From NCBI GenBank assembly GCA_029706075.1, contig JAINUG010000070.1, forward strand, positions 2,837,500 through 2,901,499: DNA of 64,000 bases, read 5' to 3'. Positions 14,745 through 56,543 of this stretch are shown one piece after another. The stretch comes from Aldrovandia affinis (lineage: Eukaryota > Chordata > Actinopteri > Notacanthiformes > Halosauridae). Under the pieces are notes generated by a model that was not told where the DNA came from, ran no database searches, and was given only the letters and a program-made list of their open reading frames with translations. A program made the position numbers and the translations under genes. Numbering within the stretch: position 1 is the first letter of the stretch; each line of letters opens with the position of its first letter.

Positions 14745-15467
<723 letters not shown>

Positions 15468-27713: not shown

Positions 27714-27717
27714 ATGT

Positions 27718-28275
27718 TGTGGCAGCCCGAAGGGTTGCACCACAAAATGGCTGCCTGGCCTCCAACACATGGCAGCCATTTTTCACTACATTTCCCAGCA
27801 TGCCACCGCAACACCTGAACGAAGTCAGGCAATGGAGCTAAGCCAGCTGACCAGCATTGCAAGGCCTATTTAAAGGTCTCGCTCCCATTGTTCTGCGAAA
27901 GGAGTAGGAACGAGCTGTGAAAGGAGTTGCTGTGCGAGTTTGGTGAGTAAATACCTGTGAAGTCATTGACCAGCCAGGATTTACAAGGAGCTGTGAGAGA
28001 GAGTGTTTTTGTGTTGGATTGGATTGATTGGAATTGGATTACGGACTGGACAACGGAACTTGGACCTGGATTGCGGATTTGGAACGGACATCGACGAAGA
28101 GACAAGAATTGTGGACTTTGTGTTCGTATTCCCCAAAAGACCCCACCCTGCGTTTTGTGTTGTTTGTTTAATAAATCATAATTTCTGCTGATATTACTGC
28201 CTCCTCAGTGTTCTTACACTTGCCTACGCCCTCTGAAAGGTCAGTGAGTGTCGCCCAACCCTTGGGGACGCCACA
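27718..28275 (+). repeat. Left (5') LTR
   Basis: 558 bp, TGTGGCAGCCC...GGGGACGCCACA. A TATTTAAAG box lies at 27867-27875 and an AATAAA signal at 28170-28175, giving a U3-R-U5 layout in plus orientation. Confidence 0.92.
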
Positions 28276-28277
28276 TA

Positions 28278-28294
28278 TGGTGGAGAATGCGGGC
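28278..28294 (+). promoter_or_regulatory. Primer-binding site complementary to tRNA-Ala
   Basis: TGGTGGAGAATGCGGGC begins two bases after the LTR. It is the complement of the CCA-tailed 3' end of vertebrate tRNA-Ala (whose genes end GCCCGCATCCTCCA or a CATTCTCCA variant), with at most one mismatch from my recollection of those genes. Confidence 0.8.
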
Positions 28295-28367
28295 AGAGGG
28301 CAGCACAGATAGGCAAGAGGAGGTAGTGCAGCAGGGGTTTTGTTTGGTTTGTGCAACAGACTCCACG

Positions 28368-28574
28368 ATGGAAGAGATGCAGAGACCGAAGAGACGGGCA
28401 GCCATGGTGGAGGACCGATGGCGTGTCACCCTCCGTGAGGTCCAACAGCTGAAGCAGAGTGCCCAGCTTGAGCTGTGCAAGGCAAAGTTGGAGGTGAGCA
28501 CCTCAGAGGAGCGCCACCTGATGGCAATGATGAAGTTGCGAGAGGAGCACCACATGGACTCCTGGGAGTGGTGA
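28368..28574 (+). CDS. Short charged ORF at the 5' end of the internal region
   Basis: 68 codons from ATG 28368, beginning [18 protein letters not shown] and containing [20 protein letters not shown]. It is rich in Lys, Arg and Glu, probably helical, and ends at a TGA six bases before the ATG of the GRIPAP1-like frame. It could be a leftover of the element's own Gag N-terminus or further captured sequence. I recognise no domain. Its place straight after the primer-binding site argues for a first-ORF role. Confidence 0.4.
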
Positions 28575-28579
28575 GAATC

Positions 28580-29856
28580 ATGGCTGGGGAGATGGAAAAG
28601 GAGAAGGCATCCCTTGGCGATGAGATGAGGCGTGTAGAGTCCCACAACCTGGCGCTCAAAGAACAGGTGAGAAACCTAACAAAGATGTGTGAGAATGAGC
28701 AGCGACATTGTCTGGACATGCAGGAGTCCCAGGACCAGGCCACAGATGAGTATGCCAGGGCCTTGGGGGATGCACAGACCAGGCTCGCCCAGAAGGAGGC
28801 AGAGCTAAGGAAAGCAGCGGAGAACCATGCGTCCGAGGCGGAGCAACTCCGGTGCCAAGTGGAGCAGGAGAGCAGGGATATGCACCAGGTCGAGGCCAAC
28901 GCCCTGCGGGAGCAGCTGGCCCAGCTGGAGAAGAGTGTGGAGCAGGAAATGGCGCTGAACATGGAGCTGCAGCAGAGGCAGACCGAGCAGGAGAAGCTCC
29001 TGGCCCAGAGAGATGACGTCAGCTCCCAGCTGCAGGAGGTGAACCACGCCAACAGCCGGCTCCTGGAGCAGGTGACTGAACTGGGCCAAGAGAAGGACAA
29101 ACTCCAGCAGGAGCTGGAGGAGACCAGGAAGACGGCGGACAAGCGCCAGGCCATGCTGGACGAGCTGGCCATCGACGTGGCGCAGGAGAAGTCGCGGCAC
29201 AAGGAGGAGCTGAGCGACGTGCGGCTGCAGCACGAGAAGGAGGTGCTGGGCGGCGGGCGCGCTACGAGAAGGAGCTGCGCGGCCTGCACGAGGACCAGAA
29301 CCGCACCGAGGAGGAGATCCGCTCACAGCTCCGTGACGAGAAGGCCCGCACTCGGGAGCTGGAGAGCCTACAGCCGACGGTGGAGAAGCTGCAGGCTCAA
29401 ATCCAGTCCATGGAGGGCACCAAGGGATGGTTCGAGCGCAGACTCAAAGAGGCGGATGAGACGGCGGAGAAGAGTGCGCTGGAGCACCAGGAGCAGGTCC
29501 AGAAGCTGCAGCTGGAGCAGACCGCACAGCTTCAGGGGAAAATGGCGGAGATGGAAGCCCAGCAGCGGGCCACAGAGAATGCATTTCGGGAAGTACTGAA
29601 GGTCCAAGCCGAGACTGTGCTGGACCTACAAGCCCGACTGAAAGGGGTGAGTGAAGACTTAGCCTGTGTAAAGTGTGTTCCTGTCACCCAAGACGCTAGC
29701 ACGCAGGTGGAGGTCTCGCAGCCAGCGGAGCTGGGAGGACATGATGACCAGACATTGGAGTGGGGACAGTGGTCCTCAGTCCCACTCAGCCTGCCGGACC
29801 TTCAAGGGGGCCTAGAGGAGCTATGGGGGACCATAGGGTTGAGGAAGGCCTCCTAA
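28580..29856 (+). pseudogene. gripap1: Captured GRIPAP1 (GRASP-1) coiled-coil segment
   Basis: From ATG 28580 the frame runs as a continuous heptad-rich coiled coil of about 225 codons, is broken by one missing base near 29250 (after HEKEVLG), and resumes ([20 protein letters not shown]) to a stop at 29856. Motifs that I recognise from vertebrate GRIPAP1 appear in the same order: [43 protein letters not shown] and [10 protein letters not shown]. Likeness is clear from about 28890 to 29565. GRIPAP1 is a cytosolic recycling-endosome effector of Rab4 that binds the AMPA-receptor scaffold GRIP1. No introns interrupt the segment, so it came from a spliced transcript. The N-terminus and C-terminal half of the host protein are absent. 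The end (DASTQVE...) looks element-derived. Confidence 0.8.
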
Positions 29857-30486
29857 TTAAGGCCGAGGCCTGTTTGAGCACCCGACCATCTCCTGATGTG
29901 GTGAGTCCATCTCCCTCAGTAAAATTAAAAAGACAGAGAAGAATGGAGCGCAGAAATTCTGGTCGGAAGAAAAACGGGAAACGGAACCGGCAGATGATGG
30001 AATGGGATGACCCTAGGAAATGGCTAGGGAAGGGGGATTTTAAGGAAAATGTGGAAAATAAATCCAAGAATAAAAGTAACAGTGTTGTGAAGAGCATGAT
30101 TTCCCCAGTTACCCCACCAGACCCTCTGAAAGAAAAAGGGATGTGGAGGAAAAGGCTGAAGCATGGACACTGGATTCCGGAACGGCACAACGTATACCGG
30201 AGGAGCCATGGGGGGCTGGTGAAGACCAGAACAGGAGCGGTGACCGCTCCGTCCGTGGAGCCCAGAGCCTGTACCCACTGGTGGCCATTTTGGGCAGAAA
30301 AGGTGAGCAACTTGCGTCACTCATTAATGTCTGCCAGATTTTTTCAGGCAACCGGAGACTGGGGATTCTGGACGTTTGACCCAGGGGGGACACTTCCTGA
30401 GTGGACCTGGAGAGGGGGACCCTCCTGGTGGCCGCTGGACATAGGCCGCTCGGCCCTCCCCGAGGTCAGAGCTGAGGAGGAGGGTG
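29760..30486 (+). CDS. Basic downstream ORF of the LTR element, unrecognised
   Basis: An open frame overlapping the end of the coiled-coil ORF in another phase and running into the right LTR (nominal stop at 30587). It holds a strongly basic run (KLKRQRRMERRNSGRKKNGK) followed by Trp-rich segments (DWGFWTFDPGG, WRGGPSWWPLD). I recognise no enzyme motif. It may be a remnant of the autonomous element's Gag or Pol, or a chance frame. Confidence 0.35.
30473..30486 (+). promoter_or_regulatory. Polypurine tract
   Basis: TGAGGAGGAGGGTG abuts the right LTR, where a plus-strand primer tract is expected. Confidence 0.7.
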
Positions 30487-31047
30487 TGTGGCAGCCCGAA
30501 GGGTTGCACCACAAAATGGCTGCCTGGCCTCCAACACATGGCAGCCATTTTTCACTACATTTCCCAGCATGCCACCGCAACACCTGAACGAAGTCAGGCA
30601 ATGGGAGCTAACGACCAGCTGAAGGCCATTGCAAGGCCTATTTAAAGGTCTCGCTCCCATTGTTCTGCGAAAGGAGTAGGAACGAGCTGTGAAAGGAGTT
30701 GCTGTGCGAGTTTGGTGAGTAAATACCTGTGAAGTCATTGACCAGCCAGGATTTACAAGGAGCTGTGAGAGAGAGTGTTTTTGTGTTGGATTGGATTGAT
30801 TGGAATTGGATTACGGACTGGACAACGGAACTTGGACCTGGATTGCGGATTTGGAACGGACATCGACGAAGAGACAAGAATTGTGGACTTTGTGTTCGTA
30901 TTCCCCAAAAGACCCCACCCTGCGTTTTGTGTTGTTTGTTTAATAAATCATAATTTCTGCTGATATTACTGCCTCCTCAGTGTTCTTACACTTGCCTACG
31001 CCCTCTGAAAGGTCAGTGAGTGTCGCCCAACCCTTGGGGACGCCACA
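30487..31047 (+). repeat. Right (3') LTR
   Basis: 561 bp, nearly identical to the left LTR. The main differences cluster near 30597-30635. AATAAA lies at 30942-30947. Confidence 0.92.
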
Positions 31048-31094
31048 ATGTATACAAACAACATCATAAAAAACAACAATGACATGGTGCTTTA

Positions 31095-40101: not shown

Positions 40102-41377
40102 CTCATCTCATCTCATCTTCAGCCGCTTATTCCTAGTTAGTTATTCCTAGGGGGGGCTGGAGCCTATCCCAGCATGCATTGGGGCGAGAGGCAGGAATAC
40201 ACCAGTGGTGGGCCATCAGGGCCTGCAAGGCCTTCTCTGCTGGCCTAAAAAATATCTGAATCACAGACTGATGTTAATTATATTTTGTCCATGAATACTT
40301 ATTAAATAATTCCAAATGGTCTGTCTGCTTCCTTTCATAGCTTTTCCCTGGTTGCGCTGCGTCCAGACGTGTATTTTCATATTAAAGCATTTAACCAATC
40401 ACATTTCAGCCATCATTTGTTGCCACGGTCAAATAAATCTGCCTGGAGGCCTTCACAATCAATTCTGAAGGCCCTGTAGCATAAAATAAGTGTTGATCAA
40501 AGTGTTGCTTCAACCAATCAAATTTTGAGTTGGAGACACCAAGGCCTTCTAGAAGGCCTAGGTACGTCAGCGTATTCACACCCTTTGATTGGATAGTCAG
40601 AGAGTATCTGACTATGATGTAATGTGATTGGTTAAATGCTTTAATATGAAAATACACGTCTGGAAGGAGCGCAGCCAGGGGAAAAGCTATGAAAGGAAGC
40701 GGACAGACCATTTTGAATGATTTGAACCATTTATTGAGTTATTAATAACAAGCTAGCCATCATGCAAGGCAGATAATAACATTACATTACATTACATTAC
40801 ATTACATTATAGGCATTTGGCAGACGCTCTTATCCAGAGCGACGTACAACAAAGTGTTAACCGTAGTCAAGAACAGTTTAGCTGAAAGCCACCCTAGTGG
40901 GAAGTACAATTCCTGGGTGCTAGGAGCAACCACATAGTTAAACTAGGACCCTGTAGGTAAATCTGTAGCCACAATTCAGAGGTAGCAGTAAAGCACTCAA
41001 TGCAGGAAATAATGCCTAAGCCTAATACAATACATAAACAAGTAGACGTGTAAACTAAGCAACTATGTCCCTAAGTTAACAAAAACTGGACTACGGGGAG
41101 AGGTGCACCCTGAAGAGGTGAGTCTTCAGTCGCCGCTGAAGGTGGCCAGGGTCTCAGCTGTTCTGACTTCCACAGGAAGGTCATTCCACCATCGTGGAGC
41201 CAGAACCGACAGGAGACGTGACCGGGAAGCGCAGGGGGGGAGGTGCTAGGCGTCCTGAGGTAGCAGAACGGAGAGGTCTGGCAGGTGTGTAGGGTTTGAA
41301 GATCTTGGTGAGGTATGTTGGGGCTGATCCCTTGACTGCCTGGTATGCTAGGACCAATGTCTTGAATTTGATGCGAG

Positions 41378-45696: not shown

Positions 45697-46436
45697 TGTC
45701 AGGGCAGGGACCAGAAAACCAGGCGCGGACCCAGAAATGCAGAAACTTATTTTATTAAGTGAACAGGCAAAGGTCAGGCAGGAGTAATCAGGGCAATGCA
45801 GAGATCCAAAGGATGGTCGGGGACAGGCAGAGTTCGTTACGGGCTTCAGGGGTATCAGGGGCAGGCAAGGCGTAGTCAGTGGGCAGGCAAAGGTCGAAAA
45901 CGAGAAGGCAGTCCAGGGAACACAGGGAGGAGCGGGAACGAGACTGGGGTACTGACGAACACTGGAGCACAAACACGAACACGAACACGAAGCCACAAAA
46001 CGCTGGGAAACAGAGATAACGCGGGAGAGTAATGTGAGCATAACGCAAAGCACAAGACAATCTGGCAACGAACATGGGAAAACACACAGCTTAAATACAT
46101 TTAGACATAACGAGAAACAATCAGGAATAAACATGAATGCAGCTGACTGCAATCAGACACATGAGGAATTAAGTGAAAACGATAATACAATAACGAGACA
46201 ATCAGGAAATGAACATGGGAAACGAACAGCTAACTACATCAGACATAACAAGAAACAATCAGGAATTAACATGAATGCAGCTAACTGCAATCAGACACAT
46301 GAGGAACAGGTGAAAACAATACAATGACAAGACTGGGAACAGGTAGGTGAAAGTGAAAACACGGACCAGACAACCAGGAAAACATGGAGCGAATGAAAAC
46401 ACCTAATTACGGGGAACACGAACACGAGACGTGACA
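45697..46436 (-). repeat. Gypsy LTR 1 (3' end of the tandem)
   Basis: 740 bp. The minus strand starts TGTCACGTCTCG and ends CCCTGCCCTGACA. TATTTAAG box at 46090-46097, AATAAA signal at 45751-45756 (minus). It contains a two-copy repeat of about 143 bp (about 46050-46330). Confidence 0.95.
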
Positions 46437-47720
46437 GTACCCCCCCCCTAGGGACGCCACCTGGCGGATCACCAACCTGTATCGGATGCCGACGCAGGAA
46501 TTCCTGGATTAGGAGGGTCGACGATATGTCTCTCGGCACCCAACTGCGCGTTCGGGGACCGTACCCTCCCAATCCACCAGAAATTGGCGACCACGGCCCC
46601 TGCGTCGGACATCCAGCAGGCGGCGAACGGTGTAGACTGGGCCCCTTCGATGAGCCGGGGGAGGTGGGGTGGACAGGAGGGCTAAAACGAGAGACAAGAT
46701 AGGGTTTGAGACGAGACATGTGAAACACAGGATGGATGCGGCGTAGGGGAGGGGGGAGGCGCAACTGTATGGCCGAGGGGGTGATAACACGAATGATGGG
46801 GTAGGGACCAATAAATCTAGGGGATAACTTTTTACAAGATCCCCGCAGGAGAATGTCCTTGGCAGAGAGCCAGACCTTCTGGCCGACCCTGTAGCGAGGG
46901 GCCGGACGACGGTGGCGGTCGGCCTGGCTCTTCATGGCTGAGACGTGGCGAAGTAGGGTGACACGTGCTCTCCGCCATGTACTTCGGGCTCTTGAGATGA
47001 GGGCCTGGGCAGACGGCACCTCCACCTCCTTCTCCTCCTCTGGGAACAGAGGAGGTTGGTATCCCAAACAACATTTAAAAGGAGAGATTCCGGTAGAGGA
47101 TACGGGAAGGGAATTGTGGGCGTATTCCACCCAGGGCAGGGAGCGAGACCAGGTAGCCGGAGTTTGTTCGGCCAGACAGCGCAGTCCCTTCCCCAGCTCC
47201 TGGTTATAACGCTCAGTCTGGCCATTAGTCTCTGGATGGAACCCAGAGGACAGGTTGGGCTTGGCGCCGATCAGGGAGCAAAACGCTTTCCAGAACCTGC
47301 TGGAGAACTGGGGCCCCCGGTCCGAGGTCATCTCCTGTGGTAGTCCATGGAGGCGAAAAACATGTCTCACCATGAGCTCAGCGGTCTCCTTAGCAGAGGG
47401 GAGTTTAGGCAGCGGGATGAAATGCACACTCTTAGAAAACCGGTCTACCACCGTAAGGACGACTGTGTTACCTTCAGATGGTGGTAGACCGGTTACAAAG
47501 TCCAGGGCGACATGGGACCACGGGCGTGTGGGACAGCCAAGGGCTGAAGGAGACCGCTGGGGCGTGCATTAGAGGTCTTGGACCGAGCACAGGGCACACA
47601 AGCTGCCACAAATTCGGCTGTGTCGTCCTTCATGGTGGGCCACCAAAATCTACGGGACATGAAGGCTAATGTCCGTGAAACACCGGGGTGACAGGCCATC
47701 GGGAAGAATGTGCCCACTCC
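46437..47720 (-). pseudogene. Gypsy copy A: integrase and chromodomain
   Basis: The zinc-binding end is visible in [20 protein letters not shown] and [10 protein letters not shown] (47500-47700). A one-base loss near 47530 breaks the first catalytic aspartate region. The long frame 46291-47451 then gives [36 protein letters not shown] (second Asp) and [14 protein letters not shown] (the Glu), [14 protein letters not shown] and [17 protein letters not shown]. Chromodomain pieces [20 protein letters not shown] and DWEG lie at 46560-46650. Integrase joins cDNA to the genome and the chromodomain targets chromatin. Confidence 0.9.
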
Positions 47721-48111
47721 AGCACCTGGGGCCGGACGGTCTCAGGCACGAAGAGGGGTTGGCCGGCGTATCTCTGGGAACCTGTGTGGTGTGGAGCGCC
47801 TCCTCCACCATCTGAACAATATCAAGCACAGCTGCTGCTACCATGCAGCTGGGCGGCAGGATGGGCTCAGGATTGCCTTCCTCCTCTGGAGAGGCATAGA
47901 CCCGGATAAGGCCGGCCTTGGTGTTCTTGGAACCAGGGCGAAAAGACAGGGTAAACACAAAACGTGCAAAAATAGAGACCACCTGGCTTGACGTGGATTA
48001 AGACGTTGGGCCGAGTGGAGGTACTCCAGGTTACGGTGGTCCGTCCAGACCAGGAATGGCACAGCAGCCCCTTCAAGCCAGTGTCTCCACTCTTCAAGGC
48101 TAATTTTATGG

Positions 48112-49700
48112 CTAAAAGTTCACGGTCACCAATGCTATAATTTCTCTCCGTAGCGGAAAGGCGGTGCGAAAAGAAAGCGCATGGATGTACCTTGTTGTCA
48201 GGGCTTCTTTGTGAGAGAATCGCCCTGTCCCTGAATCGGAGGCATCCACCTCCACAACGAACTGACGCGTGGGATCCGGGAGTGCGAGGACAGGGCTGAC
48301 GTGGAATCGAGACTTGAGTCTCTCGAAGGCTGCCTGGGCATCAGGATTCCATCTGAAACAAATCTTTGTGGATGTTAGAGATATTAACGGTGCGGCGGCG
48401 ACCGTGCTGTAATTACGCACAAAGCGTCTATAGAAATTTGCAAAACCCGAGGAAGCGTTGGAGTTGCTTGCGATCAGAGGGTATGGGCCATTCCTGTACC
48501 GCCTGCACCTTGGCGGAGTCCATCTCCAGATGGCCTCGGGAGATAATGAAACCTAAAAAATTGGACAGAGTCTTTATGGAAATCACATTTCTCTGCTTTA
48601 ATAAACAATCGGTTCTCTAGCAGTCTCTGGATAACCCGCGTACATGCTGTATGTGTTCCTCTAAGGTTCTAGAGAAAATCAGAATGTCATCCAGGTAGAC
48701 AGACACAAACTGGGACAGCATGTCCCGGAGGACGCCATTCACCAATCCCTGGAAGACGGCAGGAGCGTTGGTGAGTCCAAATGGCATGGCCAGGTATTCA
48801 TAATGACCAGAGTGAGTGTTGAATGCGGTCTTCCATTCATCCCCCTGCCGAATCCGGACCAGGTGGTAGGCGTTATGAGATCCAATTTGGTGAAAACTGT
48901 CCCTCCTGGAGATTGTCAAATGCCGAAGACATCAATGGGAGAGGGTAGCGGTTCTTCACGGTAATGGCATTGAGACCTCGGTAATCAATGCAAGGACGCA
49001 AAGTTCCATCTCTTCTTAACAAAGAAGAAACCAGCACCAGCAGGGGATGACGAAGGGCGGATAATTCCTGATGACAACGAGATGGCAATGTACTCCTCCA
49101 TGGCTTTGTTCTCTGGGACAGACAATGAGTATAGGTGGCCTCTCGGAGGAGTTGAACCAGGAAATAGGTCGATAGGGCAGTCGTAGGCACGATGAGGTGG
49201 CAAGGTGCAGGCACGGGACTTGCTGAAAGCCTGGCCGAGGTCGTGGTATTCAGAGGGCACGAGTGACAGGTCCACTGGTCCTTCTCTAGCCACGGGTGTG
49301 GAGTCTCCAGGGGTAGCTGCGGAACGGAGGCATGACTTCTGACAATAAGAGCTCCACTCACGGATGTTACCAGTGGTCCAGTCAATACTGGGATTGTGGG
49401 TTGCCAGCCAGGGTCCGCCAAGCACCACTGGAGCATGGGGAGACTCCATGAGATAGAGTGCTAGCTTCTCTCTGTGATTCCCAGAAACAAGCAGCTCCAG
49501 GGGCTGGGTGATCTCCTGAATTACTGCTAGAGGCGTACCTGTCAGGGTCTTGGTGCGGAGAGGTGTCGCTAGACGAGACACCGGGATTCCCATGCGACGA
49601 ACCAGGGTAGGGCAGATGAGGTTGGCATCGCCCCGAGTCAATCAGGGCCTGCACCGAAACTGCTCTCCTTGCCAGGAGAGGAGAACGTGGAGCATGGGAC
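48112..49700 (-). pseudogene. Gypsy copy A: protease, RT, RNase H
   Basis: The protease active site reads VQALIDSG near 49640, then shifts frame. [22 protein letters not shown] (near 48990), [39 protein letters not shown] and [10 protein letters not shown] (YLDD codons at 48686-48697). RNase [19 protein letters not shown] near 48240. At least four frame breaks, so no full polyprotein as read. Confidence 0.9.
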
Positions 49701-49751
49701 ATTGGGGTTGGAAGGTTGAAAGCTGAGAGGCGCCCATCAGAACCTCCCTCT

Positions 49752-50694
49752 TCACTGACGGGCGTTGTCTTTTACCGGGCACGAAGACCGGAAATGTCCC
49801 CTGCCTCCGCAGTAAAGGCAAAGTCCTCCTCCCGGCGGCGCTGGCGTTCGGCCTCGGATAGAGGAGCCCGATTCCCTGCATGGCTCCGCAGTCACAGTGG
49901 GTTGAGCGGGAAGTCGGGTCGTGTCGTCGGCCGGAAACGGGAGGAAGCAGGAGACTTGTGACGCCTTCTTCCTCTCTCCTGCAGACGCGTGTCGATTCGG
50001 ATAGCCAGGTCCACAAGTCTGTCCAGGTCCGGAGGTAGATCGCACACAGTTAGTTCGCCCAGAACCCTGTCGGAAAGACCGTGCATGAAGGCATCGTGAG
50101 GTGGCCACGGCATTCCATCCTGCTGAGGTCGCCAGGGTCCGGAACTCGATGGAGTAGTCCGAGACGGATTGTTCTCCTTGGTGAAACTGAAGCAGTTGAC
50201 GTGCCGCCGCCCGTCCGACCGAGGACCGGGTCAAAACCCTTCTCATCTCCTCCCGAAGGATGAGAAGGTTGTGAGAGCAGGGTGTCCAGACTCCAAGAGA
50301 GAGGTTCCCATAGTCGAGCTTTTCCCCAAGGAGTGTGATTACATAGGCGACCCTCGCCTCGTTCCGTAGGAAATGAGGAGGGTTGGAGTTCGAATACTAG
50401 CGAGCATTGACTCAAAAAAGCGCGACATGAGTTGGGGTCGCCCAGGTAGCGTTCGGAGAGGGTAATCGTGGTTCGGACCCTCTGATAACCGGCTTGCGTC
50501 TGCACCTGGATTACTGCGTTCTGTGCAGAACGGGCCGTTTCTGCAGACTCTTGGATGATTTGGAACATGGGAAAGCTGCTCCGCCAGAGCTTGGACGGTC
50601 TGCTGCAACGTCCGCAACTCCGCTTTGTGATGTCCAAGGCGATTCCGTGGTAATGGGCTACGTCGATGGGTTCGGGATCGTCCGCTGGTTCCAT
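49752..50694 (-). pseudogene. Gypsy copy A: Gag
   Basis: The start is ATG at 50694, only 16 nt after the 5' LTR: MEPADDPEPIDVAHYHG. The coiled-coil-like ELRTLQQTVQALAEQLSH and the capsid-like region follow in shifting frames. The CCHC zinc knuckle CLYCGGRGHFRSSCP is at 49779-49820, followed by PVKDNARQ. Gag packages element RNA. Several one-base frame breaks. Confidence 0.85.
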
Positions 50695-50698
50695 CTTG

Positions 50699-50708
50699 GC
50701 CAGATTGT
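50699..50708 (-). promoter_or_regulatory. Candidate self-priming PBS, copy A
   Basis: The minus strand reads ACAATCTGGC two bases after the 5' LTR. It is perfectly complementary to GCCAGATTGT in that LTR (51070-51079), 31 nt downstream of the TATA-like box. Confidence 0.65.
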
Positions 50709-50710
50709 TC

Positions 50711-51448
50711 TGTCAGGGCAGGGACCAGAAAACCAGGCGCGGACCCAGAAATGCAGAAACTTATTTTATTAAGTGAACAGGCAAAGGTCAGGCAGGAGTA
50801 ATCAGGGCAATGCAGAGATCCAAAGGATGGTCGGGGACAGGCAGAGTTCGTTACGGGCTTCAGGGGTATCAGGGGCAGGCAAGGCGTAGTCAGTGGGCAG
50901 GCAAAGGTCGAAAACGAGAAGGCAGTCCAGGGAACACAGGGAGGAGCGGGAACGAGACTGGGGTACTGACGAACACTGGAGCACAAACACGAACACGAAC
51001 ACGAAGCCACAAAACGCTGGGAAACAGAGATAACGCGGAGAGTAATGTGAGCATAACGCAAAGCACAAGACAATCTGGCAACGAACATGGGAAAACACAC
51101 AGCTTAAATACATTTAGACATAACGAGAAACAATCAGGAATAAACATGAATGCAGCTGACTGCAATCAGACACATGAGGAATTAAGTGAAAACGATAATA
51201 CAATAACGAGACAATCAGGAAATGAACATGGGAAACGAACAGCTAACTACATCAGACATAACAAGAAACAATCAGGAATTAACATGAATGCAGCTAACTG
51301 CAATCAGACACATGAGGAACAGGTGAAAACAATACAATGACAAGACTGGGAACAGGTAGGTGAAAGTGAAAACACGGACCAGACAACCAGGAAAACATGG
51401 AGCGAATGAAAACACCTAATTACGGGAACACGAACACGAGACGTGACA
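50711..51448 (-). repeat. Gypsy LTR 2 (shared middle LTR)
   Basis: 738 bp. It shares with LTR 1, against LTR 3, an A at the ACATAACAAGAAAC site and the lack of a 6-bp insert. TATTTAAG box at 51103-51110. Confidence 0.95.
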
Positions 51449-52840
51449 GTACCCCCCTAGGACGCCACCTGGCGGATCACCAACCTGTATCGGATGCCGA
51501 CGCAGGAATTCCTGGATTAGGGAGGGGTCGACGATATGTCCTCGGGCACCCAACTGCGTTCCTTCGGGACCGCACCCCTCCCAATCCACCAGAAATTGGC
51601 GACCACGGCCCCTGCGTCGGACATCCAGCAGGCGGCGAACGGTGTAGACTGGGCCCCCTTCGATGAGCCGGGGGAGGTGGGGTGCGGACAGGAGGCTAAA
51701 ACGAGAGACAAGATAGGGTTTGAGACGAGACATGTGAAACACAGGATGGATGCGGCGTAGGGGGAGGGGGGAGGCGCAACTGTATGGCCGAGGGGGTGAT
51801 AACACGAATGATGGGGTAGGGACCAATAAATCTAGGGGATAACTCTTTACAAGATCCCCGCAGGAGAATGTCCTTGGCAGAGAGCCAGACCTTCTGGCCG
51901 ACCCTGTAGCGAGGGGCCGGACGACGGTGGCGGCCGGCCTGGCTCTTCATGGCTGAGACGTGGCGAAGTAGGGTGACACGTGCTCTCCGCCATGTACTTC
52001 GGGCTCTTGAGATGAGGGCCTGGGCAGACGGCACCTCCACCTCCTTCTCTCCTCCTCTGGGAACAGAGGAGGTTGGTATCCCAAACAACATTTAAAAGGA
52101 GAGATCCGGTAGAGGATACGGGAAGGGAATTGTGGGCGTATTCCACCCAGGGCAGGGAGCGAGACCAGGTAGCCGGAGTTTGTTCGGCCAGACAGCGCAG
52201 TCCCTTCCCAGCTCCTGGTTATAACGCTCAGTCTGGCCATTAGTCTCTGGATGGAACCCAGAGGACAGGTTGGGCTTGGCGCCGATCAGGAGCAAAACGC
52301 TTTCCAGAACCTGCTGGAGAACTGGGGCCCCCGGTCCGAGGTCATCTCCTGTGGTAGTCCATGGAGGCGAAAAACATGTCTCACCATGAGCTCAGCGGTC
52401 TCCTTAGCAGAGGGGAGTTTAGGCAGCGGGATGAAATGCACACTCTAGAAAACCGGTCTACCACCGTAAGGACGACTGTGTTACCTTCAGATGGTGGTAG
52501 ACCGGTTACAAAGTCCAGGGCGACATGGGACCACGGGCGTCGTGGGACAGCCAAGGGCTGAAGGAGACCGCTGGGGCGTGCATTAGAGGTCTTGGACCGA
52601 GCACAGGGCACACAAGCTGCCACAAATTCGGCTGTGTCGTCCTTCATGGTGGGCCACCAAAATCTACGGGACATGAAGGCTAATGTCCGTGAAACACCGG
52701 GTGACAGGCCATCGGGAAGAATGTGCCCACTCCAGCACCTGGGGCCGGACGGTCTCAGGCACGAAGAGGGGGTTGGCCGGCGTATCTCTGGGAACCTGTG
52801 TGGTGTGGAGCGCCTCCTCCACCATCTGAACAATATCAAG
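51449..52840 (-). pseudogene. Gypsy copy B: integrase and chromodomain
   Basis: A clean stretch at 52381-52730 gives [60 protein letters not shown] (first catalytic Asp in ALDF) and [10 protein letters not shown]. Then come [14 protein letters not shown] near 52235, [14 protein letters not shown] near 51840 and the chromodomain [20 protein letters not shown] with FLVDWEG near 51600. It keeps the first Asp region that copy A breaks, but is broken in the core that copy A keeps. Confidence 0.9.
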
Positions 52841-53087
52841 CACAGCTGCTGCTACCATGCAGCTGGGCGGCAGGATGGGCTCAGGATTGCCTTCCTCCTC
52901 TGGAGAGGCATAGACCCGGGATAAGGCGTCGGCCTTGGTGTTCTTGGAACCAGGGCGAAAAGACAGGGTAAACACAAAAACGCAAAAAATAGAGACCACC
53001 TGGCTTGACGTGGATTAAGACGTTGGGCGAGTGGAGGTACTCCAGGTTACGGTGGTCCGTCCAGACCAGGAATGGCACAGCAGCCCT

Positions 53088-54660
53088 TCAAGCCAGTGTC
53101 TCCACTCTTCGAAGGCTAATTTTATGGCTAAAGTTCACGGTCACCAATGCTATAATTTCTCTCCGTAGCGGAAAGGCGGTGCGAAAAGAAAGCGCATGGA
53201 TGTACCTTGTTGTCAGGGCTTCTTTGTGAGAGAATCGCCCCTGTCCCTGAATCGGAGGCATCCACCTCCACAACGAACTGACGCGTGGGATCCGGGAGTG
53301 CGAGGACAGGGGCTGACGTGAATCGAGACTTGAGTCTCTCAAGGCTGCCTGGGCATCAGGATTCCATCTGAAACAAATCTTTGTGGATGTTAGAGATATT
53401 AACGGTGCGGCGACCGTGCTGTAATTACGCACAAAGCGTCTATAGAAATTTGCAAACCCGAGGAAGCGTTGGAGTTGCTTGCGATCAGAGGGTATGGGCC
53501 ATTCCTGTACCGCCTGCACCTTGGCGGAGTCCATCTCCAGATGGCCTCGGGAGATAATGAAACCTAAAAATTGGACAGAGTCTTTATGGAAATCACATTT
53601 CTCTGCTTTAATAAACAATCGGTTCTCTAGCAGTCTCTGGATAACCCGGCGTACATGCTGTATGTGTTCCTCTAAGGTTCTAGAGAAAATCAGAATGTCA
53701 TCCAGGTAGACAGACACAAACTGGGACAGCATGTCCCGGAGGACGTCATTCACCAATCCCTGGAAGACGGCAGGAGCGTTGGTGAGTCCAAATGGCATGG
53801 CCAGGTATTCATAATGACCAGAGTGAGTGTTGAATGCGGTCTTCCATTCATCCCCCTGCCGAATCCGACCAGGTGGTAGGCGTTGCGGAGATCCAATTTG
53901 GTGAAAACTGTCCCTCCTGGAGATTGTCAAATGTCAAGACATCAATGGGAGAGGGTAGCGGTTCTTCACGGTAATGGCATTGAGACCTCGGTAATCAATG
54001 CAAGGACGCAAAGTTCCATCTCTTCTTAACAAAGAAGAAACCAGCACCAGCAGGGGATGACGAAGGGCGGATAATTCCTGATGACAACGAGATGGCAATG
54101 TACTCCTCCATGGCTTTGTTCTCTGGGACAGACAATGAGTATAGGTGGCCTCTCGGAGGAGTTGAACCAGGAAATAGGTCGATAGGGCAGTCGTAGGCAC
54201 GATGAGGTGGCAAGGTGCAGGCACGGGACTTGCTGAAAGCCTGGCCGAGGTCGTGGTATTCAGAGGGCACGAGTGACAGGTCCACTGGTCCTTCTCTAGC
54301 CACGGGTGTGGAGTCTCCAGGGGTAGCTGCGGAACGGAGGCATGACTTCTGACAATAAGAGCTCCACTCACGGATGTTACCAGTGGTCCAGTCAATACTG
54401 GGATTGTGGGTTGCCAGCCAGGGTCCGCCAAGCACCACTGGAGCATGGGGAGACTCCATGAGATAGAGTGCTAGCTTCTCTCTGTGATTCCCAGAAACAA
54501 GCAGCTCCAGGGGCTGGGTGATCTCCTGAATTACTGCTAGAGGCGACCTGTCAGGTCTTGGTGCGGAGAGGTGTCGCTAGACGAGACACCGGGATTCCCA
54601 TGCGACGAACCAGGGTAGGGCAGATGAGGTTGGCATCGGCCCCCGAGTCAATCAGGGCCT
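53088..54660 (-). pseudogene. Gypsy copy B: protease, RT, RNase H
   Basis: Protease: [19 protein letters not shown], active-site DSG at about 54641-54649. RT: a 280-codon frame (53088-53930) with [58 protein letters not shown] (YLDD at 53697-53708), [20 protein letters not shown] and [20 protein letters not shown]. RNase H follows in another frame near 53260. The earlier RT motif [20 protein letters not shown] is at about 53940-54000, across a frame break. Confidence 0.9.
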
Positions 54661-54739
54661 GCACCGGAAACTGCTCTCCTTGCCAGGAGAGGAGAACGTG
54701 GAGCATGGGACATTGGGGTTGGAAGGTTGAAAGCTGAGA

Positions 54740-55708
54740 GGCGCCCATCAGAACCTCCCTCTTCACTGACGGGCGTTGTCTTTTACCGGGCACGAAGACC
54801 GGAAATGTCCCCTGCCTCCGCAGTAAAGGCAAAGTCCTCCTCCCGGCGGCGCTGGCGTTCGGCCTCGGATAGAGGAGCCCGATTCCCTGCATGGGCTCCG
54901 CAGTCACAGTGGGTTGAGCGGGAAGTCGGGTCGTGTCGCCGGCCGGAAACGGGAGGAAGCAGGAGACTTGTGACGCCTTCTTCCTCTCTCCTGCAGACGC
55001 GTGTCGATTCGGATAGCCAGGTCCACAAGTCTGTCCAGGTCCGGAGGTAGATCGCACACAGTTAGTTCGTCCAGAACCCTGTCGGAAAGACCGTGCATGA
55101 AGGCATCGTAGGTGGCCACGGCATTCCATCCTGCTGAGGTCGCCAGGTCCGGAACTCGATGGAGTAGTCCGAGACGGATTGTTCTCCTTGGTGAAACTGA
55201 AGCAGTTGACGTGCCGTCGCCCGTCCGACCGAGGACCGGCCGAAAACCCCTTCTCATCTCCTCCGCGAAGGATGAGAAGGTTGTGAGAGCAGGGTGTCCA
55301 GACTCCAAGAGAGAGGTTCCCCATAGTCGAGCTTTTCCCCAAGGAGTGTGATTACATAGGCGACCTCGCTCGTTCCGTAGGAAATGAGGAGGGTTGGAGT
55401 TCGAATACTAGCGAGCATTGACTCAAAAAAGCGCGACATGAGTTGGGGTCGCCCAGGTAGCGTTCCGGAGAGGGTAATCGTGGTTCGACCCCTCTGATAA
55501 CCGGCTTGCGTCTGCACCTGGATTACTGCGTTCTGTGCAGAACGGGCCGTTTCTGCAGACTCTGGATGATTTGGAACATGGACGAAAGCTGCTCCGCCAG
55601 AGCTTGGACGGTCTGCTGCAACGTCCGCAACTCCGCTTTGTGATGTCCAAGGCGAATTCCGTGGTAATGGGCTACGTCGATGGGTTCGGATCGGTCCGCT
55701 GGTTCCAT
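54740..55708 (-). pseudogene. Gypsy copy B: Gag
   Basis: Starts MEPADRSEPIDVAHYHG at 55708, 16 nt after LTR 3, followed by GHHKAELRTLQQTVQALAEQ. The zinc-knuckle region is at about 54785-54850, with the Cys residues in a shifted frame. A 263-codon frame (54551-55342) joins part of Gag to the protease. Confidence 0.85.
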
Positions 55709-55712
55709 CTTG

Positions 55713-55722
55713 GCCAGATTGT
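55713..55722 (-). promoter_or_regulatory. Candidate self-priming PBS, copy B
   Basis: The same ACAATCTGGC, two bases from LTR 3. Its complement lies in LTR 3 at 56089-56098, 31 nt from the TATA-like box (56122-56129). Confidence 0.65.
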
Positions 55723-55724
55723 TC

Positions 55725-56468
55725 TGTCAGGGCAGGGACCAGAAAACCAGGCGCGGACCCAGAAATGCAGAAACTTATTTTATTAAGTGAACAGGCAAAG
55801 GTCAGGCAGGAGTAATCAGGGCAATGCAGAGATCCAAAGGATGGTCGGGACAGGCAGAGTTCGTTACGGGCTTCAGGGGTATCAGGGGCAGGCAAGGCGT
55901 AGTCAGTGGGCAGGCAAAGGTCGAAAACGAGAAGGCAGTCCAGGGAACACAGGGAGGAGCGGAACGAGACTGGGGTACTGACGAACACTGGAGCACAAGC
56001 ACAAACACGAACACGAACACGAAGCCACAAAACGCTGGGAAACAGAGATAACGCGGGAGAGTAATGTGAGCATAACGCAAAGCACAAGACAATCTGGCAA
56101 CGAACATGGGAAAACACACAGCTTAAATACATTTAGACATAACGAGAAACAATCAGGAATAAACATGAATGCAGCTGACTGCAATCAGACACATGAGGAA
56201 TTAAGTGAAAACGATAATACAATAACGAGACAATCAGGAAATGAACATGGGAAACGAACAGCTAACTACATCAGACATAACGAGAAACAATCAGGAATTA
56301 ACATGAATGCAGCTAACTGCAATCAGACACATGAGGAACAGGTGAAAACAATACAATGACAAGACTGGGAACAGGTAGGTGAAAGTGAAAACACGGACCA
56401 GACAACCAGGAAAACATGGAGCGAATGAAAACACCTAATTACGGGGAACACGAACACGAGACGTGACA
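55725..56468 (-). repeat. Gypsy LTR 3 (5' end of the tandem)
   Basis: 744 bp. It has an extra ACAAGC-like hexamer near 55996 and G at the ACATAACGAGAAAC site, unlike LTRs 1 and 2. GAACA follows at 56469. Confidence 0.95.
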
Positions 56469-56543
56469 GAACAGAAGAGAAATCTAAATCTAAATCAATA
56501 TTTGATGTGACCATCCTTTGCCTTCAAAACAGCATCAATTATT

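What the first reader, a model, noticed from the sequence alone, without database searches (positions are those of the whole stretch)
27718..31047. LTR retrotransposon that carries a captured GRIPAP1 cDNA segment
The sequence shows two near-identical LTRs, a tRNA-Ala-type primer-binding site, a polypurine tract and a 4-bp direct repeat, but no retroelement enzyme. The interior is an intronless coiled coil whose ordered motifs ([31 protein letters not shown]) I recognise from GRIPAP1. Host-gene transduction by LTR elements is known mainly from retroviruses and plant elements; a fish element carrying part of a recycling-endosome effector would be notable. One frameshift interrupts about 425 codons. 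A product, if made, could act as a dominant fragment of GRIPAP1, or simply serve as spacer or Gag-like coiled coil.
Basis: partly seen in the sequence, partly recalled or inferred. Interest (0 to 1): 0.88.

Follow-up and report, generated by a model that had tools for sequence, protein, structure and literature searches.

The report
Jumping element carrying a GRIPAP1 piece
This fish DNA holds a jumping element, without recognisable enzymes of its own, that picked up an intron-free piece of the host gene GRIPAP1 and appears to have spread in many copies; it is a vertebrate example of a gene-capture process known best from plants and retroviruses, with no sign so far that the captured piece still works as GRIPAP1.

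Summary
The finding is real. Window 27718-31047 is a 3.3-kb LTR element: TG...CA LTRs that differ in 13 alignment columns, all within about 20 bp; an ATGT target duplication; a tRNA-Ala-type primer site; a purine tract; no Pfam-recognised Gag/Pol in the 13 frames scanned. About 202 residues (28949-29559) are GRIPAP1 sequence, 84-86% identical to eel GRIPAP1, in frame between coiled-coil segments of the element.

Of 53 related protein models, all from Aldrovandia affinis (the likely species), 50 carry the GRIPAP1 piece. Hits to the element's own coil were all Aldrovandia (43 of 43, 12 of 12). All 8 models that read past the 3' join share it, across three 5' join types, which fits one capture and later recombination. 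The joins seem to lie inside exons, pointing to template switching onto spliced mRNA. Changes private to one model ignore GRIPAP1's conserved sites, so a working GRIPAP1 fragment is not indicated.

Closest precedent: maize Bs1. The host genome could not be searched, so LTR-linked copy number, dN/dS, expression, enzyme donor and donor-gene exons are untested.

The parts
27714..27717 (.). target-site duplication, left copy (ATGT)
27718..28275 (+). 5' LTR, TGTGGCAG...GACGCCACA, with a poly(A) signal AATAAA
28278..28294 (+). primer-binding site, matches the 17-nt 3' end of tRNA-Ala (tRNA sequence recalled)
28368..28948 (+). element's own coiled-coil segments A and B of the hybrid reading frame; one frame break near 28570; relatives found only in Aldrovandia affinis
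28949..29559 (+). captured GRIPAP1 segment (about fish residues 371-575; central coiled coil), intronless at the one exon edge that could be placed; one frame break near 29250
29560..29856 (+). element's own C-terminal tail of the hybrid reading frame, ends in a stop codon
29857..30486 (+). 3' region with one weakly significant open frame (basic, then W-rich; 209 open codons; 40 of 2000 shuffles reach it); no Pfam or PDB match
30474..30484 (+). polypurine tract GAGGAGGAGGG
30487..31047 (+). 3' LTR
31048..31051 (.). target-site duplication, right copy (ATGT)
14745..15467 (+). solo LTR of the same LTR superfamily (pieces 75-81% identical), expanded by a GA repeat, flanked by ATAG within a GATA-like repeat

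Best explanation
This is one young copy of a non-autonomous LTR retrotransposon family. An ancestral copy encoded a coiled-coil protein of its own. During reverse transcription the enzyme switched onto co-packaged, spliced GRIPAP1 mRNA and back, leaving about 200-240 codons of GRIPAP1 in frame inside the element's ORF. The hybrid then spread using the reverse transcriptase and integrase of another element, and later recombined on its 5' side. The GRIPAP1 piece is now carried mainly as a passenger or spacer coil. Shown: the LTR anatomy, the GRIPAP1 identity, one exon edge crossed without an intron, both joins in frame in the window DNA, 50 related models with the piece in one annotated species, and no GRIPAP1-type constraint on changes private to single models. 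Inferred: template switching, mobilisation in trans, a single capture, that the other models also lie between such LTRs, and the species.
For: LTR anatomy with target duplication. The best 31 of the 120 listed hits (1123 in all) are Aldrovandia affinis hypothetical proteins, followed by an unnamed Albula protein and named GRIP1-associated protein 1 of Conger, Anguilla and Scleropages. The window's own segment matches 172 of 202 residues of Conger and of Anguilla, 169 of Scleropages, 153 of Danio GRIPAP1. Five of the 89 listed GRIPAP1-type proteins end by running on after QLE or QLK, which marks an exon edge in the gene; the element runs CAGCTTCAG|GGGAAAATG across it. Models with the alternative exon join inside that exon at VEQ|VESILT (7 of 53). 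The 3' join MEA|QQRATE, eight residues past that edge, is in all 8 models that read past it and in three 5' classes. Of 53 related models, 50 hold the GRIPAP1 segment. Element rows and fish GRIPAP1 rows separate on one branch, 99/95. 8 of 204 element consensus residues are absent from four elopomorph GRIPAP1 sequences, 1 of the 8 at a conserved site. Residues private to one model fall at conserved sites 95 of 186 times, or 43 of 69 once scrambled stretches are blanked; 113 of 204 sites are conserved. The LTRs are near-identical, yet this copy has two frame breaks.
Against: No second full element with LTRs was seen, because the host genome could not be searched; the link between the 53 models and this LTR rests on shared interior sequence. 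The models are automatic gene predictions, favour open frames and may splice out DNA, so intron absence is shown only in the window and only at one edge. The donor gene of this species was not seen, so nucleotide-level junctions, microhomology and single versus repeated capture from that same gene are unproven; other exon edges near the 5' join are unknown. The autonomous partner is unknown.
Confidence: 0.85

Rival explanations
1. The hybrid protein is selected and works for the element, for example as a Gag-like self-assembling coil, and the GRIPAP1 piece was kept because it lengthens or retunes that coil.
For: The joins B|GRIPAP1 and GRIPAP1|tail are in frame in the window DNA. Four main 5' junction classes are each shared by 4 to 23 of 53 models and read in frame, though protein models are in frame by construction. 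A model without GRIPAP1 (P0121) pairs the same coil with a knuckle-like CX2CX4HX4C motif, seen by eye and not scored by Pfam.
Against: This young copy moved with two frame breaks, or gained both very recently. Private changes show no preference for GRIPAP1-variable sites under five filter settings. The predicted models are biased to open frames.
Confidence: 0.2
2. The product acts on the host as a dominant fragment of GRIPAP1.
For: The segment is a central coiled coil that could pair with host GRIPAP1 (inference).
Against: It lies between the region needed for Rab4 binding (aa 280-300) and the C-terminal region needed for syntaxin 13 binding, both described in PMC2808209 (passages; numbering of another species). 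No GRIPAP1-like constraint is seen in the private changes. This copy is frame-broken.
Confidence: 0.04
3. A LINE-made GRIPAP1 retrocopy landed inside an LTR element, which then spread.
For: LINE 3' ends of the UnaL2 type lie elsewhere in the window, so LINEs are present.
Against: No poly(A) run at the 3' join, the segment starts and stops within the coding sequence, and both joins are in frame.
Confidence: 0.08
4. The element captured GRIPAP1 more than once from the same host gene.
For: Four main 5' junction classes; the tree lacks this species' own GRIPAP1, so it cannot exclude this.
Against: Two J1, three J2 and one J3 model share the same 3' join MEA|QQRATE, and no model reading past it has another (8 of 8), as expected from one capture and later recombination with GRIPAP1-less copies.
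Confidence: 0.12

Closest known systems
Bs1 LTR retroelement of maize
   Same: An LTR element with transduced host gene fragments in a chimeric or hybrid gene (passages of reviews PMC13317346, PMC8616336, PMC5408686).
   Different: [quoted passage not shown] Here one host gene, a vertebrate, no Pfam-recognised gag, many models, expression unknown.
LTR-mediated retroposition in metazoans (Tan et al. 2016, seen only as described in passages of PMC5408686 and PMC8232201)
   Same: Template switching between LTR element RNA and cellular mRNA; zebrafish is among the species named.
   Different: Described in those passages as retrocopies; here the chimera itself appears to have become a proliferating element family.
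TRIM and other non-autonomous LTR elements, including Katydid-At1 with a transduced gene
   Same: Short non-autonomous LTR element with host sequence (passage of PMC8616336).
   Different: Longer, with a hybrid coiled-coil reading frame; found in a fish.
Transducing retroviruses (recalled)
   Same: Host cDNA replaces or joins viral genes between LTRs and needs a helper.
   Different: No env, gag or pol match found in the frames scanned; present as a genomic family.
GRIPAP1 (GRASP-1), recycling-endosome Rab4 effector
   Same: Sequence source of 28949-29559.
   Different: Only the central coil is present; the regions described for Rab4 and syntaxin-13 binding are missing.

Membership tests
LTR retrotransposon | paired LTRs with TG...CA ends | tested here: met
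LTR retrotransposon | short target-site duplication | tested here: met
   ATGT at 27714 and 31048; a related solo LTR has ATAG, in a GATA-like repeat
LTR retrotransposon | primer-binding site and polypurine tract | tested here: met
   the tRNA sequence was recalled
LTR retrotransposon | gag and pol (autonomous element) | tested here: not met
   no such domain in 13 interior frames scanned of 17 overlapping it; hence filed as non-autonomous
Captured host cDNA (gene transduction) | best named match is the host gene | tested here: met
Captured host cDNA (gene transduction) | introns absent at the gene's exon edges | tested here: met
   one edge (QLQ|GKM) in the window, inferred from models of other fish that run on into apparent intron; the own gene was not seen
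Captured host cDNA (gene transduction) | several copies with the same junctions | tested here: met
   at protein-model level only
Captured host cDNA (gene transduction) | copies share the LTRs | not tested
   The genome search did not answer in 24 tries
Functional GRIPAP1 fragment | amino-acid changes avoid conserved sites | tested here: not met
   private changes at conserved sites 95 of 186, or 43 of 69, 43 of 76, 38 of 64, 32 of 54 under stricter filters, with 113 of 204 sites conserved
Functional GRIPAP1 fragment | open reading frame in this copy | tested here: not met
   two frame breaks
Functional GRIPAP1 fragment | RNA or protein expression | not testable with these tools
   no RNA-seq at hand

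The most novel reading that the evidence does not exclude
A vertebrate LTR element lineage owes its spread to a captured endosomal coiled coil: the in-frame element-GRIPAP1 hybrid is a working Gag-like protein in the active master copies, and repeated recombination reshapes the coil.
Probability: 0.13. Interest if true: 0.82.

Novelty: new member of a known kind. Interest (0 to 1): 0.6.

Why it matters
By the reviews seen here (passages), host-gene capture by LTR elements is documented largely in plants, with retrocopies reported in animals. Here is a vertebrate family in which the captured segment, its junctions and many descendants can be read, so the steps capture, recombination and spread could be dated and tested for selection. 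It also warns that the annotation of this fish holds many GRIPAP1-like models that are element copies, some joined to parts of other genes.

Tried and rejected
Tried without result: search of the window's own genome; viral contigs (8 pattern matches, none a relative; one scan with one model, P0003); PDB (two weak hits with E 0.12 and 0.46; none); Pfam on the 3' frame (none).

Rejected: segmental duplication (TG...CA ends, target duplication and primer site are present); unrelated coiled coil (each GRIPAP1 half alone matches at 72-86% identity over its whole length); GRIPAP1 derived from the element (GRIPAP1 is listed from many fishes, the element coil from one species). Integrase-like (P0132, just under Pfam's cut-off), protease-like (P0013) and LINE-like (P0005) pieces, the last two seen by eye, look like neighbouring repeats joined by gene prediction and were not taken as the partner. 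Pfam PF27241, listed for some models, did not appear in my scan of four such models (P0007, P0009, P0019, P0026); the library copy may lack it. In the first site count more than half of the private residues came from scrambled stretches; the repeat without them gives the same verdict.

Full report
What is there. Window 27718-31047 is an LTR insertion with all its ends. The LTRs (558 and 561 bp) start TGTGGCAG and end GACGCCACA; they differ in 13 alignment columns, all between 27836 and 27854 of the 5' LTR. A 4-bp duplication ATGT flanks them. The 17-base primer site at 28278-28294 matches the 3' end of tRNA-Ala as I recall it, and a purine tract precedes the 3' LTR. A related solo LTR flanked by ATAG lies at 14745-15467, so the LTR superfamily is repeated here; that ATAG lies in a GATA-like repeat and is less certain. 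Thirteen interior frames, of the 17 of at least 60 aa that overlap the interior, gave no gag, protease, RT or integrase match.

The interior. Three stretches in three frames, 28368 to 29856, make one hybrid coding sequence of about 496 codons with two frame breaks, near 28570 and near 29250. Joined for one search, they hit 31 Aldrovandia affinis hypothetical proteins first, then an unnamed Albula protein (P0032) and named GRIP1-associated protein 1 of Conger, Anguilla and Scleropages (120 of 1123 hits were listed and only 7999 candidates scored, so counts are lower bounds). The window's own GRIPAP1 part, read as two stretches of 100 and 102 residues, matches Conger and Anguilla at 172 of 202 residues each, Scleropages at 169 and Danio at 153. 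The corresponding blocks typed from Aldrovandia models are 85-89% identical to those eels and Scleropages and 72-82% to Danio. In the window this is 28949-29559, about fish residues 371-575. The coil before it and the tail after it are not GRIPAP1: at best 22-24% identity, with E-values of 1e-4 to 7e-4 in a six-protein search, as coils give; the tail had no hit. Relatives of the element coil were found only in Aldrovandia: 43 of 43 hits and 12 of 12.

Species. The nearest model in the GRIPAP1 part, P0004, is 98% identical over 181 columns, and the 53 element-type relatives listed are from Aldrovandia affinis, a halosaur of the Elopomorpha. The window is therefore probably from that species or a close relative; this is inference.

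A spread element. Of 53 Aldrovandia models collected carry the GRIPAP1 segment at 60% identity or more. The three without it are P0121, P0126 and P0128. P0121 begins with a knuckle-like motif, CX2CX4HX4C, seen by eye before the same coil; Pfam does not score it. It may show the element's ORF before capture. One search finds 5' junction classes VEQ|VESILT (J1, 7 of 53), VEQE|MALN (J2, 11, and the window), NQELQ|TEQE (J3, 23) and MQE|MNVELQQ (J4, 4); a longer variant (8) overlaps J3, and 8 models have none. The 3' join MEA|QQRATE occurs in 8 of 53: two J1, three J2, one J3, two without a class. No model that reads past that point has another join (8 of 8). One capture with later recombination on the 5' side explains this best. 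The tree separates 24 element rows (23 models with at least 160 aligned query residues, and the window) from 15 chosen GRIPAP1 rows of the 89 listed on one branch, 99/95. The host's own GRIPAP1 was not available, so repeated capture from that same gene is not excluded.

Capture from spliced RNA. Five fish GRIPAP1 models (P0035, P0056, P0110, P0117, P0119) end by reading on into apparent intron after QLK or QLE, which marks an exon edge. The window crosses it as CAGCTTCAG|GGGAAAATG with no intron. The 3' join lies eight residues past that edge. Seven models join the element coil inside the alternative exon (VACQ...LAALEQ in fish isoforms); whether their DNA also lacks the next intron cannot be told from models. 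So far as edges are known, both ends of the segment lie inside exons, which favours template switching during reverse transcription over splicing of a read-through transcript. The review PMC5408686 (passages) describes these steps as a model.

Is the product used? [quoted passage not shown] residue numbers differ between species). Host variability was taken from the 89 non-Aldrovandia rows. The element consensus has 8 of 204 residues absent from four elopomorph GRIPAP1 sequences, 1 of the 8 at a conserved site (113 of 204 sites are conserved), so the shared stem looks like ordinary GRIPAP1 evolution. Residues seen in a single model fall at conserved sites 95 of 186 times (rank correlation 0.05, p 0.50; 49 and 31 models for the two blocks; matches under 60% identity and second copies within a model were dropped). 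Many of these came from scrambled, probably frame-shifted stretches. With such stretches blanked, or with only closer matches kept, or both, the counts are 43 of 69, 43 of 76, 38 of 64 and 32 of 54, none below expectation. So after capture the segment evolves without visible GRIPAP1-type constraint. This cannot exclude selection on a coil as such, nor on the active master copies. The in-frame joins in the window are the main hint for a working hybrid ORF; those of the models carry the bias of gene prediction. The near-identical LTRs with two frame breaks suggest that this copy, or its parent, moved without an intact protein; supply in trans is inferred.

Prior knowledge. The pair LTR retrotransposon + GRIPAP1 gave no paper. 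GRIPAP1 + retrotransposon gave five, each with a single mention of GRIPAP1; I saw only the listing. Broader searches on gene capture by LTR elements were seen as listings (one search listed 20 of 42 papers, 15 of 20, 10 of 16), apart from passages of PMC8232201, PMC5408686, PMC13317346 and PMC8616336. Maize Bs1 is the closest described case. Tan et al. 2016 could not be read. I therefore file this as a new member of a known kind: unusual because it appears to be a proliferating, in-frame hybrid in a vertebrate.

Limits. The genome search did not complete (24 calls), so LTR-linked copy number, dN/dS, the donor gene and the enzyme donor remain open.

Noticed in passing
45697-56469 (minus strand): Tandem Ty3/Gypsy-type element: three ~740-bp LTRs with two ~4.3-kb interiors, repeat unit 98.3% identical, frames broken; Pfam matches above cut-off for RT and a Tf2-1-type SH3 domain, just below it for integrase, gag and protease.
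   Followed up: partly
14745-15467: Solo LTR related to the element's LTR, with a ~180-bp GA repeat inside and ATAG on both sides.
   Followed up: yes
29857-30486: A 209-codon open frame, basic then tryptophan-rich, with no Pfam or PDB match; 40 of 2000 shuffles reach it. Could be a second element ORF.
   Followed up: partly
27836-27854 against 30605-30626: All 13 differing columns between the two LTRs lie in this one short cluster, which looks like a template switch or conversion from another LTR variant.
   Followed up: partly
P0002, P0011, P0025, P0026, P0027, P0028: Aldrovandia gene models that join the element-GRIPAP1 coil to doublecortin, methyltransferase, fibronectin-type, plectin, GalNAc-transferase or myosin-X-type parts, by the names and domains listed (plectin also): probably annotation artefacts, possibly exonised copies.
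   Followed up: no
726-778 and 40807-40860: UnaL2-type LINE 3' ends on the minus strand.
   Followed up: no
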